Source of the DNA: Methanomassiliicoccales archaeon PtaB.Bin134
Lineage (GTDB): Archaea > Thermoplasmatota > Thermoplasmata > Methanomassiliicoccales > UBA472
NCBI GenBank assembly: GCA_002067045.1
Contig: MVPZ01000084.1
Coordinates: 1 to 56,273 of the forward strand
Direction of reading: 5' to 3'
Length of the DNA stretch: 56,273 bases
Shown here: positions 38,028-45,327 of the stretch, piece by piece
Layout: each line of letters starts with the position of its first letter
Position numbering within the stretch: the first letter of the stretch is position 1
Made by a program: the position numbers and the translations under genes
Notes under the pieces: generated by a model
Told to the model about the DNA's origin: nothing
What the model saw: the letters and a program-made list of their open reading frames with translations, nothing else
The model's database searches: none

Positions 38028-39038
38028 ATGGGAGTGAACATTTCCGACCTGGTGGTGGCCAGGGACCTGGAGCCCCGGGACATGATGGGAAGGACCGTGG
38101 CCATAGACGCCTACAACGCCATCTACCAGTTCCTTTCGGTCATAAGGCAGCCGGACGGCACCCCGCTCATGGACCCCCGGGGACGGACCACCTCCCACCT
38201 GGAGGGCCTTCTGAACCGCAACGCCAACCTGCTGGAGATGGGCATCCGGCCGGCCTACGTTTTCGATGGCATCCCCCCGGAGAAGAAGGCCGAGACCATC
38301 AAGGCCCGCCGGGAGCGCAGGGAGGCCGCCCACCGGGAATGGGAGCAGGCCAAGGCCGAGGGGGACGTGCGCAAGGCCTATTCCAAGGCCACGCAGTCCT
38401 CGCGCATCACCAACGAGATCGTGGAATCCTCGCGCATACTCCTGACCCACCTGGGCATCCCGGTGGTCCAGGCCCCGGAGGAGGGCGAGGCCCAGGCCGC
38501 CCACATGTGCGCCAAGGGCGACGTGTGGGCCTCGGCCTCCCAGGACTTCGACTCGCTGCTCTTCGGCGCCCCCCGCCTGGTGCGCAACCTGACCCTCTCC
38601 GGACGCAGGAAGATGCCCGGGCGTGAGGAGTACCGGGAGGTGCGCATGCAGCTGGTGGACCGGGACGAGACCCTGGCCTCCCTGGGGCTGAACGCCCAGC
38701 AGCTGGTGGACCTGTGCATACTGGTGGGCACGGACTTCAACCCGGGGGTGATGGGCATCGGACCGAAGAAGGCCCTGAAGCTGATAAAGACCCACGGCAC
38801 CCTGGCCGGGGCGCTCCGCTCCCTGGGGCTGGAGGGCGACCCCATGGAGAAGGTGCGCTCCATATTCCTGGACTTCGAGCGCACGGATGATTACGTCCTT
38901 CGTTGGTACCCCCCAGACCGCCAGAAGGTCCTGGACATGCTGTGCGGCGAGCACGGCTTCTCCGAGAAGAGGGTGAACGGGGCCCTGGACAAGTTCTCCT
39001 CGGGCAAAAAGGACCAGATGCGGCTGGACATGTTCTAG
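38028..39038 (+). CDS. fen: Flap endonuclease 1
   Basis: A 336-residue structure-specific nuclease for Okazaki fragment processing. The N-terminal XPG region has VAIDAYNAIYQF. The internal region has the acidic sites APEEGEAQAAHM and ASQDFDSLLFG, and VGTDFNPGVMGIGPKKALKLI carries the H2TH motif. The last seven residues QMRLDMF form a PIP-type PCNA-binding tail. It ends with TAG. Length is normal. Confidence 0.96.
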   Translation: MGVNISDLVVARDLEPRDMMGRTVAIDAYNAIYQFLSVIRQPDGTPLMDPRGRTTSHLEGLLNRNANLLEMGIRPAYVFDGIPPEKKAETIKARRERREAAHREWEQAKAEGDVRKAYSKATQSSRITNEIVESSRILLTHLGIPVVQAPEEGEAQAAHMCAKGDVWASASQDFDSLLFGAPRLVRNLTLSGRRKMPGREEYREVRMQLVDRDETLASLGLNAQQLVDLCILVGTDFNPGVMGIGPKKALKLIKTHGTLAGALRSLGLEGDPMEKVRSIFLDFERTDDYVLRWYPPDRQKVLDMLCGEHGFSEKRVNGALDKFSSGKKDQMRLDMF

Positions 39039-39117: not shown

Positions 39118-42100
39118 ATGATAAAGCAGGTCCAAGGCAGTTATAACCCGAGTGCGCTGGAGAAGGAGGTTCAGGCCCATTGGGCCGAGACCGACGCTTA
39201 CAAGAAGACCAAGGAGCTGAGGGCCACCGGCCCCGACTTCTATTTCGTGGACGGTCCGCCGTACACCACTGGATACATCCACATGGGTACGGCCATGAAC
39301 AAGACCATCAAGGACGTGATGGTCCGGTTCAAGAGGATGCAGAGGTTCAACGTCTCTGACACCCCCGGCTACGACATGCACGGTCTCCCCATCGAGGTCA
39401 AGGTGGAGAAGTCCATAGGCGTGAAGAACAAGAAGGAGATCGAGGAGTACGGCATAGACCGCTTCGTCGGCACATGCAAGAACTTCGCCCTGGAGTTCCA
39501 GAAGAAGATGAACGAGGACTTCAAGGAGCTGGGCGTGTGGTTCGACTGGGAGCGTCCATACCTGACCATCTCGCCCAACTACATCGAGGCGGCGTGGTGG
39601 ACCATCAAGCGTGCTTACGACAAGGGACTGCTCATCAGCGCCAGTCGGGTGCTGCCGGGATGTCCGCGCTGCGAGACCGCGCTGGCGGAGGCGGAGATCG
39701 ACTACTGGGATGAGAAGGACCCTTCCATCTACGTCAAGTTCCGTCTCAAGGACGACCCCAAGGCCTCGCTGCTCATCTGGACCACCACCCCCTGGACCCT
39801 GCCGGCCAACCTGGCCGTGGCGGCCCATCCGGACTTCGAGTACGTGAAGGTGCGCTACCGCAGGATAGGGGAGACGGACACCGTCATAATCATGAAGGGG
39901 CTGGAGGAGGAGATCAAGGACCTGGGCGGCTGGGAGAAGTACGACGTGCTGCAGGTCATCCAGGGGGACGACCTGGTGGGGGCCGAGTACATCACCCCCT
40001 TCGTGGACGAGGTCCCCTACCAGACCCAGGCCAGCGGGAAATGGCTGCACAAGGTGCTGCCCTCCAAGAACGTGGAGGCCTCCAACACCGGACTGGTGCA
40101 TATCGCCCCCGGCCACGGCCCGGAGGACTTCGAGCTGGGCAAGGAGTTCGGCCTGGAGCCCTTCTGCCCGGTGGACGAGACCGGTACGTACACCCGCGAG
40201 GTCGGGGACAAGTACGCGGGATGGCACATCAAGAAGGCCAATCCCGAGCTGCTCAAGGACCTGGAGGCCAAGGACCGCCTGTTCTTCAACGGGGTGATCG
40301 AGCACCGTTACGGGCACTGCTGGAGGTGCAAGTCCCCGGTGCTGTTCCGCACCACCGACCAGTGGTTCCTGCGGGTCACCCAGGTCAAGAACCAGATGCT
40401 GGAGGAGATCGAGAAGGTGCGCTGGACCCCGGATTGGGCCGGGTCGTCCCGCGAGTACGACTGGGCCATGAACGCCCGGGACTGGTGCATCTCCCGCCAG
40501 CGGTACTGGGGCATACCCATACCGGTATGGGTCTGCAAGTGCGGGGAGATGAGGGTGGTGGGCATGGCCGACGAGCTCAAGGGGGCCGAGGGCTACCATG
40601 AGGACATGGAGCTGCACCGGCCCTGGATCGACGCGGTCAAGCTGAAGTGCTCTAAGTGCGGGGGACAGATGTCCCGCGTCCCTGACGTCCTGGACGTGTG
40701 GTTCGATTCCGCGGTGGCCTCCTGGGCCCAGCTGGGCTTCCCGAAGAAGAGGGAGGCCTTCGAGCGCCTGTGGCCGGCCAAGTTCATCGTGGAGGCCCAT
40801 GACCAGACCCGCGGATGGTTCTACTCGCAGCTGGCCGCCGGCGTAATCGCCTTCGGCCGCGCGCCCTACGAGTCCGTGCTGATGCACGGATGGATGCTGG
40901 ACGGACAGGGCCAGCCCATGTCAAAGAGCAAGGGCAACGTGGTCGAGCCGGGCAAGGTCATAAAGGAGCACGGCGCGGACGCCCTGCGCTTCTACACCCT
41001 GAAGACCTCCGCCCCCTGGGAGGACATACCCTTCCAGATGGAGGGGGTCAAGAACGCCAGGAAGACCCTCAACGTGCTGTGGAACGTGGTCAACTTCGCC
41101 ACCACCTACATGGCCATAGATAAGTTCGATCCGAGCATGATCACCAAGGAAACGGTCCGGCCCCACTTGAACAGGGAGGATGTCTGGCTGATATCCAGGA
41201 CCGAGATGCTGAAGAACGAGTTCACCAGGCAGGTCAACGCCCTGGAGCTGCACAAGGCCGCAAGGATGCTCGAGGAATACATACTGGAGGACCTCTCCCG
41301 ATGGTACGTGCGGCTCATCCGGGACCGCATGTGGAGCGAGGAGGGGGACGCCGGAAAGCTGGCCGCCTATCGGACGCTCTACGACGCCATCATGGACACC
41401 ACCCTGCTGCTGGCACCCATATGCCCGCACCTGACCGACAGGATATTCATGCATATGGACGGCAGCAAGCCGACCGTGCACATGATGGAATGGCCGAGCA
41501 GCGACCTGACCAAGGTGGACGAGCGCCTGGAGAAGGCCATGGAGATGGTGCAGGAGATCGTGGAGACGGTCACCCGCGAACGCCAGCTCAAGAACGTGAA
41601 GCTCAGATGGCCGATGAAGCGCATCGTCATCAAGGTGGAGAACGACGACCACCTGGCGGCGCTGCGCTCCATGGAGGACATCCTGAGGTCCCAGGCCAAC
41701 GTCAAGGAGGTGGAGTACGTGGGCGCCGGGGAGGAGTGGTCGGAGACCATCCTGAACGTGGTGCCCAACCCCATGGCCATCGGGAAGGTGTACAGGCAAT
41801 GGGCCTCCAAGATCGCCGTCCTGCTGCAGAGCCGCCCCGCCAACCTTATCAAGGAGAGCATGCAGCGCGGACAGTACTCGCTGGGCATCGAAGGGCAGCT
41901 GATCAAGATCGAGCCGAACATGGTCTCCTTCACCATATCGCTGCCCCAGGACGTCTACGCCGCCAACTTCAGCGGGGGCGAGATCTACCTGGACTTCGAG
42001 GTCACCCCGGAGATCGAGGCCGAAGGATACTCCCGGGAGATCATCCGCCGCATCCAGCAGACCCGCAAGGACCTCAAGCTGGACGTTGAGGAGTTCGTCA

Positions 42101-43269
42101 AGGTGGAGATAAGGGCCGACCCACGGGTGGCCGAGTTCGTGAAGATATGGAAGCAGCACATCATGTCCGAGGTGCGCTCCAAATGCCTGGAGCTGGTGGC
42201 CGAGGCCTCCGGCGAGCAGGTCGGCAAGTGGGAGATAGAGGGGGAGAAGGTGGAGATCGGGGTCAGCTCCATGAACCTCAAGGACGCCATGAAGGACCTG
42301 ACCAAGGTCCCGGGGATAACCCCCAAGGTCGCGGAGTCCCTGGTGGACGCCGGGGTGCGCTCGGTCTGCGAGCTGAAGTCCCTGAGCGAGGACAAGCTGG
42401 AGGACCTGACCAAGCTGGGACGGGCGGAGGTGCGCAAGATACTGCACTTCTTTGACCGCTCCCAGGAGCTGGCCAAGGTCCCTGAGCCCGTTGGCGAGTC
42501 TATGGAGAAGAGGGACCTGGTCCCCTACATGCTGCGCATCCCGCGCATGAACGAGCTCAAGGCCGAGATGCTCTACGACGCCGGGTACGATTCCCTGGAG
42601 AAGCTGAAGGCCGCCGGCCGCGAGGACCTGAAGAACTTTCCGGGCCTGGGCAGCAAGACCATCGACGAGATCGTGGGCTACATAGGCAAGGGCGGATTCG
42701 ACCGCGCCTCCAAGTGCCCCAAGTGCGCACACCAGGTGTCCGCCGGGGAGCTGAGCTGCCCCGCCTGCGGCCATTCCATGCTGGCCGAACCAGAGGAAGA
42801 GGCGCCGGAGGAGGAGCAGGGACTGCAGTACGGCTACAGCTACCTGCTGAAGGACGACCGCCCGGACCGCTCCTACCAGCTGTTCATGGAGCAGCTCAGG
42901 AAGGGCAGCAAGGGCTTCTGCATCACCAGGAACTACCCGCTCAAGATCCGCGGGAAGTACGACCTGGGGGACACCCCGGTGATCTGGCTGAGCAACGTGG
43001 GCAAGGAGGACAGCCTGCGCCCCAAGGACCTGGAGAAGCTCAGCTACTCGCTGGAGCAGTTCCTGGCCCAGGGGCAGGGAGTGGTCCTGCTGGACGGGCT
43101 GGAGTACCTGATAACCAACAACAACTTCCTGACCGTGCTGCGCTTCGTGCAGTCCCTCAGGGACCAGGTGGCCATCAACAACTCCATCATGATGATGGTG
43201 CTGAACCCCTCCACCCTGGACGCCAACGAGCTCAATCTGCTGGAGAAGGAGGTCGACGGGACCTTATAG
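39118..43269 (+). CDS. ileS: Isoleucyl-tRNA synthetase with C-terminal HhH / zinc ribbon / DUF835 extension
   Basis: A 1383-residue protein. Residues 1 to about 1050 form a complete archaeal IleRS: HIGH motif HMGT (55-58), KMSKS motif MSKSK (601-605), editing domain and anticodon-binding part. About 330 further residues follow in the same frame. Two helix-hairpin-helix-like repeats (about 1061-1110 and 1139-1190) each contain a PG-type turn. A zinc ribbon has Cys pairs at about 1200/1203 and 1214/1217. An acidic linker and a DUF835-like domain (about 1242-1380) complete the chain. I read the frame through and saw no stop or shift. It ends with TAG. Confidence 0.95.
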   Translation: MIKQVQGSYNPSALEKEVQAHWAETDAYKKTKELRATGPDFYFVDGPPYTTGYIHMGTAMNKTIKDVMVRFKRMQRFNVSDTPGYDMHGLPIEVKVEKSIGVKNKKEIEEYGIDRFVGTCKNFALEFQKKMNEDFKELGVWFDWERPYLTISPNYIEAAWWTIKRAYDKGLLISASRVLPGCPRCETALAEAEIDYWDEKDPSIYVKFRLKDDPKASLLIWTTTPWTLPANLAVAAHPDFEYVKVRYRRIGETDTVIIMKGLEEEIKDLGGWEKYDVLQVIQGDDLVGAEYITPFVDEVPYQTQASGKWLHKVLPSKNVEASNTGLVHIAPGHGPEDFELGKEFGLEPFCPVDETGTYTREVGDKYAGWHIKKANPELLKDLEAKDRLFFNGVIEHRYGHCWRCKSPVLFRTTDQWFLRVTQVKNQMLEEIEKVRWTPDWAGSSREYDWAMNARDWCISRQRYWGIPIPVWVCKCGEMRVVGMADELKGAEGYHEDMELHRPWIDAVKLKCSKCGGQMSRVPDVLDVWFDSAVASWAQLGFPKKREAFERLWPAKFIVEAHDQTRGWFYSQLAAGVIAFGRAPYESVLMHGWMLDGQGQPMSKSKGNVVEPGKVIKEHGADALRFYTLKTSAPWEDIPFQMEGVKNARKTLNVLWNVVNFATTYMAIDKFDPSMITKETVRPHLNREDVWLISRTEMLKNEFTRQVNALELHKAARMLEEYILEDLSRWYVRLIRDRMWSEEGDAGKLAAYRTLYDAIMDTTLLLAPICPHLTDRIFMHMDGSKPTVHMMEWPSSDLTKVDERLEKAMEMVQEIVETVTRERQLKNVKLRWPMKRIVIKVENDDHLAALRSMEDILRSQANVKEVEYVGAGEEWSETILNVVPNPMAIGKVYRQWASKIAVLLQSRPANLIKESMQRGQYSLGIEGQLIKIEPNMVSFTISLPQDVYAANFSGGEIYLDFEVTPEIEAEGYSREIIRRIQQTRKDLKLDVEEFVKVEIRADPRVAEFVKIWKQHIMSEVRSKCLELVAEASGEQVGKWEIEGEKVEIGVSSMNLKDAMKDLTKVPGITPKVAESLVDAGVRSVCELKSLSEDKLEDLTKLGRAEVRKILHFFDRSQELAKVPEPVGESMEKRDLVPYMLRIPRMNELKAEMLYDAGYDSLEKLKAAGREDLKNFPGLGSKTIDEIVGYIGKGGFDRASKCPKCAHQVSAGELSCPACGHSMLAEPEEEAPEEEQGLQYGYSYLLKDDRPDRSYQLFMEQLRKGSKGFCITRNYPLKIRGKYDLGDTPVIWLSNVGKEDSLRPKDLEKLSYSLEQFLAQGQGVVLLDGLEYLITNNNFLTVLRFVQSLRDQVAINNSIMMMVLNPSTLDANELNLLEKEVDGTL

Positions 43270-44037
43270 TCCCAGCGCCTGGAGCACCCTGAGGAAGCCG
43301 GGGACCGTGTCGTAGGAGGCCAGCTCCTCCACGGTGACCCAGGCGTGCTCGGTGTGCTCCCAGTCCAGCTTGACCTCCTCGTCCCCCACCTCGAAGAGGA
43401 AGGGGTAGATGTTCCAGAGGTGGGCCCCGTCCCTTATGCGCAGGGCCTCCGCCTGGCCCATAAGTCTGGCGGTGCTGATGCCGGTCTCCTCGGCCACCTC
43501 CTTCAGGGCGGTCTCCTCCGGCCGCTCCCCGCGCTCCACGAAGCCGCTCACAGCGGCCCACCTCCCCTTGTTGGTGCCGACCTTCTGGCTGCGCTTGAGC
43601 AGCAGCAGGCGGTCCTTGCGCTTCAGGATGCAGGTCACCACCCTCTTCTCCACCAGGTCCATCATGTCCAGGGAATCGCCCACGATCACCGCGCGGTCGC
43701 CCTCTCGCAGGATGGAGATGTCTATGGAATCGATCATGGGCACCTCGGCCATCACCGCGCCGGTGGCCACGATGGTCTCCGCCTCCGAGTTGATTATGGC
43801 CGCGGGGAGGTGGCCGTTCTTCTTCAGGTCCATCATGGTGTACGAACCGACCGTGGAACCCTTGCCATGAGGGAAAACCAGAATCCGGCCGTCGATGCTC
43901 TCCCCCTCCCTGCCGGAGGCCACGGTGAACAGCCCGGTCCGGGGGTCCACCCCGCCTAGGAAGCTGAAGGCCTCGTCCAGTACCATAAGCCGCCCGATCG
44001 CCCTTCCCTTGAATATCGCCCTTCCCTTGATCTTCAC
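43264..44037 (-). CDS. AcnX small subunit (DUF126, phosphomevalonate dehydratase swivel domain) fused to a Nudix hydrolase
   Basis: A 257-residue protein from the GTG at 44037, which overlaps the large-subunit stop as GTGA. Residues 1 to about 125 match the DUF126 swivel domain, with GKGSTVGSY around 58-66 carrying the conserved Ser. Residues about 132-257 are a Nudix domain. The Nudix box spans 165-187 (G165, E171, K179, E180, E183, E184, G186), with Lys in place of the usual Arg before the first catalytic Glu. The small subunit joins AcnX to dehydrate mevalonate 5-phosphate. The Nudix substrate is unknown. The 3' end overlaps ileS by 6 bases. Confidence 0.88.
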   Translation of the reverse strand: MKIKGRAIFKGRAIGRLMVLDEAFSFLGGVDPRTGLFTVASGREGESIDGRILVFPHGKGSTVGSYTMMDLKKNGHLPAAIINSEAETIVATGAVMAEVPMIDSIDISILREGDRAVIVGDSLDMMDLVEKRVVTCILKRKDRLLLLKRSQKVGTNKGRWAAVSGFVERGERPEETALKEVAEETGISTARLMGQAEALRIRDGAHLWNIYPFLFEVGDEEVKLDWEHTEHAWVTVEELASYDTVPGFLRVLQALGL

Positions 44038-45200
44038 AGTATCATCTCCAACAGTTCTCGCTGCGTACCGCAGAACACCTTCTGCGAGCAAAGCCCGGGC
44101 AGGTACGCGCAGGCCTTGGCCGAATCGCTGGCGGTGACCTGGTGCAGCCCCTCGATGGGCGCCACCACCATGCAGGTGTCGCAGAGCACCTTGCCGAAGC
44201 TCTCCAGCACCGCCCGCTCCTTGGGGCAGCGCAGCCACACGCCCTTCGAGGTGCAGAACCAGACCTCCACCCCGCTCCTCTTCTCCTTGCCGTCCAGGTA
44301 ACCGGCGAGCTCCTTAATCTCCCTTTCCGAGAGATGGGGGCAGCCGATGGCTATGAGGTCCGGCCGATCCCCGGTCCTCAGCCGGGAAACGGTCTCCTCC
44401 ACGTCCTTCCTGGTGATCCTGAGCACCGGAAGCCCTTCCAGGCTGTCGGGCTGCTCGGGGGTGACCTTCTCCACCATGAACATGGCCACGGAGCCGGAGG
44501 CGGCCATGGCCGCGGCCAGGGACTTGAGGCCGTTGGCGTCGTTGCCCAGCCCGCGGAAGAAGGGTATGCAGGCCCCCAGCTTGCGGCCGACCGTATGGCC
44601 GACCAGGGACCATTCCTCCCTGGTGATGCCCTCCTCCACCTCCACCACATGGGTCGGCCTGCGGTTCCGGTCCAGGTGCAGGCCGTAGTTGGGCGTGCGT
44701 CCGGTGATGGCCGCGGCCAGGGCCCCCGGTCCGCCCTCCCGGTTGGTGCGCGCGCCCAGCACGGAGTTGGCGAAGGAGAGCGCGGACGATTCCGCCCAGG
44801 CGATGTGCTCGCCGACCTTGGGGCGGTTGGTCAGGAGGTACGGGGTGCAGGTGCAGCTCACCTCCACGCCCATCCTCTCGTACAGGGATATTATATGCAG
44901 CTGCCTCTCCGCGAAGCGCTCCGCGATGCCCATCTCACGCCAGCGCTGGGAATCCATGCCCATGGGGTTCAGGGTGGTGGGCACGGTCACCTTACCGTCC
45001 CGGGCCATCTCCTCCAGGAAGTCTATTCCGCCCTCGCCTATGGTCTTGTAAGATACGCCGGAAAGGTGCGCGGAGGTGATGGGTATGAGCCGGTCGGCAC
45101 CGTAGATCGTGCCGAGGGCCACCAGGAGCTCCATGGCCTTGCGCTTGGCGTTGCCCTGCCTTCCGGCCAGCATCTCCTGTTCCTCGGGTGTGAGTTGCAT
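44034..45200 (-). CDS. AcnX large subunit, phosphomevalonate dehydratase catalytic subunit (DUF521)
   Basis: A 388-residue aconitase X catalytic subunit. Conserved parts include the start LTPEEQEMLAG, the iron-sulfur-linked segment SCTCTPYL, SVLGARTNREGGP and, near the end, ASDSAKACAYLPGLCSQKV. In archaea it converts mevalonate 5-phosphate to trans-anhydromevalonate 5-phosphate using an iron-sulfur cluster. The ATG at 45200 is the natural start; the frame continues upstream but runs antisense-free into the tRNA, so it is not coding. Confidence 0.93.
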   Translation of the reverse strand: MQLTPEEQEMLAGRQGNAKRKAMELLVALGTIYGADRLIPITSAHLSGVSYKTIGEGGIDFLEEMARDGKVTVPTTLNPMGMDSQRWREMGIAERFAERQLHIISLYERMGVEVSCTCTPYLLTNRPKVGEHIAWAESSALSFANSVLGARTNREGGPGALAAAITGRTPNYGLHLDRNRRPTHVVEVEEGITREEWSLVGHTVGRKLGACIPFFRGLGNDANGLKSLAAAMAASGSVAMFMVEKVTPEQPDSLEGLPVLRITRKDVEETVSRLRTGDRPDLIAIGCPHLSEREIKELAGYLDGKEKRSGVEVWFCTSKGVWLRCPKERAVLESFGKVLCDTCMVVAPIEGLHQVTASDSAKACAYLPGLCSQKVFCGTQRELLEMIL

Positions 45201-45250
45201 GGAACAGCGTATAGAATGGAAAGATAAGAAATTGTTGCAGTGAAAGGAGG

Positions 45251-45327
45251 TGGCGGGCCTGTGGGGATTCGAACCCCAGTTCGAAGCTCCGGAGGCTTCA
45301 GTGATATCCAAGCTACACTACAGGCCC
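45251..45327 (-). tRNA. tRNA-Arg (anticodon CCG), CCA encoded
   Basis: The cloverleaf is clear on the minus strand. The acceptor stem is GGGCCTG / CAGGCCC, and the anticodon stem GAAGC / GCTTC holds loop CTCCGGA (anticodon CCG at 34-36). The T-arm is TGGGG-TTCGAAT-CCCCA. The D-arm has GG in the loop and a T-T mismatch at 13-22. The discriminator is G, and CCA follows at 45253-45251. No intron is present. It lies between S27ae and AcnX on the same strand without its own obvious TATA box. Confidence 0.93.

What the first reader, a model, noticed from the sequence alone, without database searches (positions are those of the whole stretch)
39118..43269. IleRS fused to HhH repeats, a zinc ribbon and a DUF835-like domain
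A complete archaeal isoleucyl-tRNA synthetase (motifs HMGT and MSKSK intact) continues without a stop into about 330 extra residues: two helix-hairpin-helix-like repeats, one zinc ribbon and a DUF835-like domain. DUF835 is normally found in archaeal signalling or membrane-linked proteins of unknown role. The HhH and ribbon could add tRNA affinity; the DUF835 part could report charging state or attach the enzyme to another complex. I know of no described function for this combination.
Basis: partly seen in the sequence, partly recalled or inferred. Interest (0 to 1): 0.75.

Follow-up and report, generated by a model that had tools for sequence, protein, structure and literature searches.

The report
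IleRS carrying a KaiC-like signalling domain
An archaeal enzyme that loads isoleucine onto its tRNA carries a strongly conserved, KaiC-like domain at its end, and in related archaea the same fusion is kept even after its enzyme active-site motifs have been lost, which suggests it also works as a sensor or adaptor.

The parts
39118..43269 (+). IleRS-HhH-Zn ribbon-DUF835 fusion gene, 1383 aa (stop codon included)
39118..42267 (+). IleRS body, residues 1-1050: catalytic + CP1 editing, anticodon-binding and DUF5915 domains; HMGT from residue 55, MSKSK from residue 601
42280..42453 (+). first HhH_5 domain, residues 1055-1112
   Evidence: Pfam HHH_5; helical in the model
42508..42687 (+). second HhH_5 domain, residues 1131-1190
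   Evidence: second HHH_5 stretch and HHH_2/RNA_pol_A_CTD matches; helical in the model
42703..42783 (+). zinc ribbon, residues 1196-1222 (CPKC...CPAC), followed by an acidic linker to about residue 1240
   Evidence: missing in many fused homologues
42838..43266 (+). DUF835 domain, residues 1241-1383: KaiC/FlaH-like fold with no room for a P-loop

Best explanation
In the window this is, by its motifs, a catalytically competent housekeeping IleRS that also acts as a signalling input or adaptor. Shown by computation: the C-terminal DUF835 is predicted to be a KaiC/FlaH-like RecA fold with only four residues where a P-loop would be, so it should not be an ATPase. It sits on a variable HhH/zinc-ribbon spacer, was joined to IleRS apparently once, and is the best conserved part of the protein. 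Shown: in one subclade the IleRS body lost KMSKS, while DUF835 stayed nearly unchanged and an ordinary IleRS is present. Inferred: DUF835 docks on a partner of the archaeal KaiC/DUF835 network (a KaiC-family ATPase or another DUF835 protein), and the state of the IleRS body (isoleucine, Ile-AMP, or charged versus uncharged tRNA-Ile) decides what is passed on. Because decayed copies are unlikely to be regulated as charging enzymes, the information most likely runs from the IleRS body to DUF835, not the reverse.
For: Fold and missing P-loop. DUF835 listed as iKaiC in archaeal response regulators (PMC5847659, passages); REC-DUF835 proteins exist in the window's relatives. One gain, two losses on the trees. 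Mean share of the commonest residue 0.79 in DUF835 against 0.71 in the catalytic part over 113 rows. Decayed copies (13): mean identity to 32 intact fused copies falls from 0.60 to 0.40 in the catalytic part but only from 0.64 to 0.58 in DUF835. KMSKS intact wherever the fused copy is the sole IleRS found (21 of 21, one a fragment); lost in 7 genomes, all 7 with a plain IleRS with intact motifs. Purifying selection on one decayed pair: catalytic part pS 0.80, pN 0.073; DUF835 pS 0.55, pN 0.012. Tail-less genomes of the two nested types (8 examined) have 2-3 PF06745 and 0-2 PF05763 hits, against 14-36 and 7-37 in 25 of 26 fused genomes examined. Positions conserved at 80% or more in 45 IleRS-linked DUF835s (NVGKE, RPKDLEKLS, LEQFL, QSLRDQ) mostly do not reach 50% in 33 other DUF835s.
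Confidence: 0.5

Rival explanations
1. Scaffold: DUF835, being related to ring- and filament-forming RecA/KaiC proteins, serves only to oligomerise IleRS or hold it in a multi-protein (for example multi-synthetase) assembly, with no sensing.
For: KaiC/RecA-like fold; the linker is highly variable, tails of 255-811 aa, as a tether would be; the giant member P0123 (2921 aa) carries accessions that I recall as TPR families.
Against: Decayed copies keep DUF835 although they probably no longer charge tRNA, so assembling a charging enzyme is unlikely to be their role. Apart from IleRS, none of six large DUF835 ORFs looked at was a synthetase (four scanned with Pfam; L087 and L089 only lacked an IleRS match); most other DUF835 proteins were not examined.
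Confidence: 0.22
2. tRNA handling: HhH domains and ribbon raise tRNA affinity, as appended domains of other synthetases do; DUF835 is a passenger.
For: HhH and zinc ribbons often bind nucleic acid (general knowledge); the tail HhHs match those of RadA, DNA polymerase X and ligase.
Against: HhH and ribbon are the least conserved domains (0.46-0.48 and 0.29 against 0.79 for DUF835); L084 has about 30 residues between IleRS and DUF835 and the precomputed Pfam list of P0080 has no HhH; the HhH regions have net charge +1 and 0.
Confidence: 0.1
3. Trans-editing: decayed copies keep CP1 editing and clear Val-tRNA-Ile in trans; the DUF835 localises them.
For: 15 of 28 fused proteins scored as having lost KMSKS keep the T-rich editing motif TTxPW (one of the 15, P0181, is a mild case), and in the L075 group the Asp-bearing motif is kept as well (read by eye from the rows).
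Against: The L071 group has altered editing motifs (TPYPW; Glu for Asp), and L081 and L082 have lost them, yet these keep DUF835. The plain IleRSs of all 7 genomes carry their own editing motifs.
Confidence: 0.07
4. Inhibitor tolerance: two IleRSs coexist because one resists a natural IleRS inhibitor, as with mupirocin-resistant IleRS2.
For: Coexisting IleRS1/IleRS2 are known (PMC10485003, passages); a plain copy in G361 (L129) has a GVHH motif like the swapped motif described there.
Against: Fused copies without KMSKS are poor candidates for resistant back-ups; in 21 of 31 fused genomes only one IleRS was found.
Confidence: 0.05
5. Artefact: assembly joins two genes, or two-IleRS genomes are mixed bins.
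Against: The same fusion in many assemblies and in the named species Methanomassiliicoccus luminyensis (P0080); pairs of decayed and plain copies recur as sister pairs in separate genomes (L071/L133 with L072/L132; L081/L135 with L082/L136; tree).
Confidence: 0.01

Closest known systems
DUF835 / iKaiC response regulators (REC-DUF835; Galperin et al. 2018, PMC5847659)
   Same: Same Pfam domain, PF05763, listed there as an inactivated KaiC-like domain of archaeal response regulators (passages)
   Different: Here the partner domain is a whole IleRS, not a receiver domain; IleRS-linked DUF835 has its own conserved positions
FlaH/ArlH and KaiC (RecA-superfamily ATPases)
   Different: No P-loop: four residues between strand 197-201 and helix 206-217 of the model, so no ATPase activity expected
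HisZ (HisRS-like regulatory subunit of HisG; PMC9437257, passages)
   Same: A synthetase-like body without aminoacylation kept as a regulator
   Different: HisRS-derived, bacterial; here the fusion also exists with intact catalytic motifs, and it carries DUF835
LeuRS-I of Sulfolobaceae (PMC9437257, passages)
   Same: Archaeal class I synthetase paralogue that cannot aminoacylate, with a disrupted editing domain and a divergent C-terminal domain
   Different: No DUF835/HhH tail is mentioned in the passages seen; it still forms adenylate
IleRS with N-acetyltransferase domain (NCBIfam NF040702 ileS_w_GNAT)
   Same: A curated case of IleRS with an extra domain (model name)
   Different: GNAT, not DUF835; the window protein scores 427.6 bits against a cut-off of 1999

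Membership tests
Isoleucyl-tRNA synthetase | full-length match to the curated ileS model | tested here: met
   946 bits, cut-off 621.4
Isoleucyl-tRNA synthetase | HIGH and KMSKS motifs, CP1 editing motifs | tested here: met
   HMGT (Thr as last residue, usual among the IleRSs compared), MSKSK, TTTPWT, APGHGPED
Isoleucyl-tRNA synthetase | charges tRNA-Ile with isoleucine | not testable with these tools
   inferred from motifs and from 21 of 31 fused genomes having no other IleRS found; the window's own genome is not held
DUF835 (PF05763) | match above the Pfam gathering score | tested here: met
   117.1 bits, cut-off 33.1
KaiC/FlaH ATPases | RecA/KaiC fold | tested here: met
KaiC/FlaH ATPases | P-loop (Walker A) for ATP | tested here: not met
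   four-residue loop DDRP where GxxxxGK[ST] would be; five KaiC-like proteins from fused genomes have GSFGTGKT
iKaiC signalling domains | KaiC-like fold without ATPase motifs in a signalling protein | tested here: inconclusive
   fold and missing motif met; the signalling role of the IleRS fusion is not tested
Non-catalytic synthetase paralogues (HisZ/LeuRS-I kind) | loss of catalytic motifs beside an intact paralogue | tested here: not met
   the window protein has intact motifs; seven relatives in G genomes do meet it

The most novel reading that the evidence does not exclude
IleRS-DUF835 is an archaeal amino-acid or tRNA-charging sensor: the IleRS body reads isoleucine or tRNA-Ile state and the KaiC-like DUF835 transmits it into the archaeal KaiC network. 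In one lineage the enzyme has become a dedicated pseudo-synthetase receptor, an archaeal counterpart in principle to Gcn2 (recalled) or HisZ. If so, archaea have a synthetase-based starvation signal that I found no description of in the held papers.
Probability: 0.28. Interest if true: 0.88.

Novelty: new variant of a known kind. Interest (0 to 1): 0.64.

Why it matters
To my knowledge DUF835 has no known input or output. This fusion ties it to a defined, essential enzyme with measurable ligands, and nature has already separated the two functions: some copies keep both, others keep DUF835 and lose KMSKS. That makes the question of what DUF835 does, and whether archaea sense amino-acid starvation through a synthetase, directly testable.

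Tried and rejected
Sequencing error or two split ORFs: rejected. REC-DUF835 as the obligatory partner: considered after G143 proved to hold just IleRS-DUF835 and one REC-DUF835, then dropped as a general rule. KaiC ATPase as obligatory partner: not shown; G143 speaks against it. Conserved downstream gene of the decayed copies: four loci (L071, L072, L081, L082) have a neighbour of about 295 aa, but Pfam shows ketopantoate reductase in L081 and L082 and nothing over cut-off in L071 (L072 not scanned), so no partner shared by all. hhalign of DUF835 against five KaiC-like proteins gave only P 0.053 on 83 columns, so the link rests on the predicted structure, not sequence. IleRS-linked DUF835 as one clean clade: not obtained (5 changes); L084 and L080 sit with other DUF835s, so domain exchange or long-branch error is possible there. 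Motif screens used other patterns and gave other counts (18 of 141 flagged; 38 of 218 without the KMSKS pattern); one search is the one counted. In one search my pattern for the editing Asp was wrong (it scored 3 of 176 intact enzymes), so that column is not used. Trees carry long branches (L079, L081, L082, L129). Searches of the held papers that found no earlier report: (DUF835 is named in 1 paper); in PMC11237513 a term search found neither IleRS nor DUF835. The paper on KaiC hubs cited there (PMC5717392) is not held, so it may already mention this architecture.
Full report
Observation. The ORF 39118-43269 (+) is open from ATG to stop, 1383 aa. Residues 1-1050 are a complete IleRS: NCBIfam ileS 946 bits against a cut-off of 621.4, with catalytic, anticodon-binding and DUF5915 domains, and with HMGT, MSKSK and both CP1 editing motifs. 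Then follow two HhH_5 domains, a zinc ribbon (below Pfam's cut-off, but with both CxxC pairs) and DUF835 at E 6.3e-34. The whole 1-1383 aligns in one frame in six relatives, some titled Methanomassiliicoccales or Methanomassiliicoccaceae, and a seventh is cut by its contig end.

How widespread. A search with the tail gave 332 proteins at E <= 1e-3, of which 120 were listed; one is from the named species Methanomassiliicoccus luminyensis (P0080, 1301 aa). In 29 of the 38 I confirmed an IleRS fusion. In the other 9 no matching ORF has a known IleRS part; I judged these by ORF length and looked at three of them (L060, L088, L089). G143 (found by the body search) and G004 bring the fused genomes examined to 31.

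What varies and what does not. Among the 121 proteins the CxxC pairs of the ribbon are often missing, and tails run from 255 to 811 aa. L084 has about 30 residues between the IleRS match and DUF835. DUF835 at the C-terminal end is nearly constant (L081 has about 250 further residues). Over 113 proteins (8 fragments dropped) the mean share of the commonest residue is 0.79 in DUF835, 0.71 in the catalytic part, 0.65 and 0.69 in the anticodon and DUF5915 parts, 0.48 and 0.46 in the HhH domains and 0.29 in the ribbon. That set was collected by tail similarity, which favours the tail. Among 32 intact fused proteins (two pairs of them identical in the body) mean pairwise identities are closer: 0.64 for DUF835 and 0.60 for the catalytic part.

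History. On a tree of 72 IleRS bodies (residues 1-1050; IQ-TREE quick, LG+G4) one branch with SH-aLRT 99 separates 24 unfused proteins from 48 that comprise all 40 fused ones and 8 unfused ones nested among them. A FastTree of 89 rows gave the same picture: 3 changes, that is one gain and two losses if the root lies among the unfused. The two losses are a group of seven (L090, L101, L102, L104, L111, L112, L138), whose sister L080 of G143 is still fused, and L094 of G180. The DUF835 tree is less clean: IleRS-linked domains need 5 changes, and L084 and L080 sit with other DUF835s.

Loss of the tail and the KaiC network. For 26 of the 31 fused genomes I counted PF06745 hits: 14-36 in 25, and 5 in G143. 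They number 2-3 in 8 genomes with a tail-less IleRS of the two nested types, and 5-26 in 10 other unfused genomes. PF05763 hits are 7-37 in the same 25, 2 in G143, 0-2 in the 8 and 0-14 in the 10. Six of the 8 are rows of the tree; G207 and G168 (L103, L105) were left out of the trees to thin the set, and two tail-less tree rows (G204, G171) were not counted. The tail was thus lost where the network is small, on two branches. Two events are few, and a large network alone does not bring the tail (G087, G012).

Pseudo-synthetases. In 21 genomes the fused copy is the only IleRS found; its KMSKS is intact in all 21 (MHKS in G333) and its HIGH motif in the 20 that reach that far (G183 is a fragment). 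In 7 genomes (G256, G258, G323, G357, G313, G363, G367) the fused copy has lost KMSKS, and in three of them (L079, L081, L082) HIGH as well; all 7 hold a plain IleRS with intact motifs above the model's cut-off. In the last 3 (G253, G391, G361) the fused copy is intact and the plain copy has changed motifs (KISRA, KIKRG, and GVHH with MHRS). A profile HMM of intact enzymes confirms the KMSKS loss, with well-aligned flanks in the milder cases. Among 209 fused proteins with readable motifs (three duplicates and fragments dropped; some near-identical rows remain) my pattern scored 176 intact, 5 changed and 28 lost. By eye, P0163 and P0181 of the 28 are mild changes in otherwise normal enzymes, and P0120 and P0126 of the 5 belong with the lost ones. 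The 17 degenerate rows in the tree form one subclade (SH-aLRT 99) together with two members that have MSKT. Loss of a signature motif is not proof of inactivity: IleRS2 enzymes with a swapped HXGH motif are active (PMC10485003, passages). The genomes' completeness is not given, so a second IleRS may have been missed in some.

Selection. In 13 decayed copies (L081 not included) identity to intact ones drops from 0.60 to 0.40 in the catalytic part and only from 0.64 to 0.58 in DUF835. In the pair L071/L072 synonymous sites are saturated in the catalytic part (pS 0.80) while pN is 0.073; in DUF835 pS is 0.55 and pN 0.012. At least this pair is maintained, not pseudogenic. IleRS-linked DUF835s, intact and decayed together (45), share NVGKE, RPKDLEKLS, LEQFL and QSLRDQ at 80% or more; apart from single positions (P, L, L, D and the like) these do not reach 50% in 33 other DUF835s, as expected of a dedicated docking surface.

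Mechanism. Since the decayed proteins are unlikely to be regulated charging enzymes and yet keep DUF835, the output is most likely DUF835 and the input the IleRS body. Whether the input is isoleucine, adenylate or tRNA is open. Some decayed copies, such as L075 and its relatives, keep the editing motifs (15 of 28 keep TTxPW), others do not, so editing cannot be the common role. Precedents for synthetase-like regulators exist (HisZ, LeuRS-I; PMC9437257, passages). I found none built on IleRS with a KaiC-like domain in the held papers, but PMC5717392 is not held.

Verdict. The fusion is real and old; the window copy is a working IleRS by the sequence tests made here. The natural series of motif loss with DUF835 kept is what makes it interesting. 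The kind, a synthetase with an extra domain and non-catalytic relatives, is known; this variant I did not find described.

Noticed in passing
window 43264-44238 (-), beside 44034-45311 (-): Aconitase X swivel domain (PF01989) fused to a NUDIX domain, next to and overlapping an aconitase X (PF04412) gene; a swivel-NUDIX ORF also lies beside the fused IleRS in L070. I recall AcnX pairs as phosphomevalonate dehydratase.
   Followed up: partly
window 38028-39038 (+); also L062, L070, L084: A FEN1/XPG-type nuclease gene lies directly upstream of the fused IleRS in the window and in these three fused relatives.
   Followed up: partly
L129 (G361) and L144 (G156): Plain IleRSs with GVHH/GIHH in place of HIGH, like the swapped motif described for mupirocin hyper-resistant IleRS2.
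   Followed up: no
P0123 (2921 aa), P0133 (2561 aa), P0134 (2330 aa), P0135 (2329 aa): Giant decayed IleRS-DUF835 proteins; P0123's Pfam list includes accessions that I recall as TPR families.
   Followed up: no
L101, L102, L103, L104, L105: Tail-less IleRSs are also short (about 981-988 aa); in four of the five the match to the window stops near residue 870, so the DUF5915 region is shortened or diverged too.
   Followed up: no
L085 (G333, 1036-aa ORF) and L084 (G333 IleRS): In the same genome a large non-IleRS DUF835 protein has the DUF835 that groups with that of the fused IleRS (support 99): a possible partner or domain exchange.
   Followed up: no
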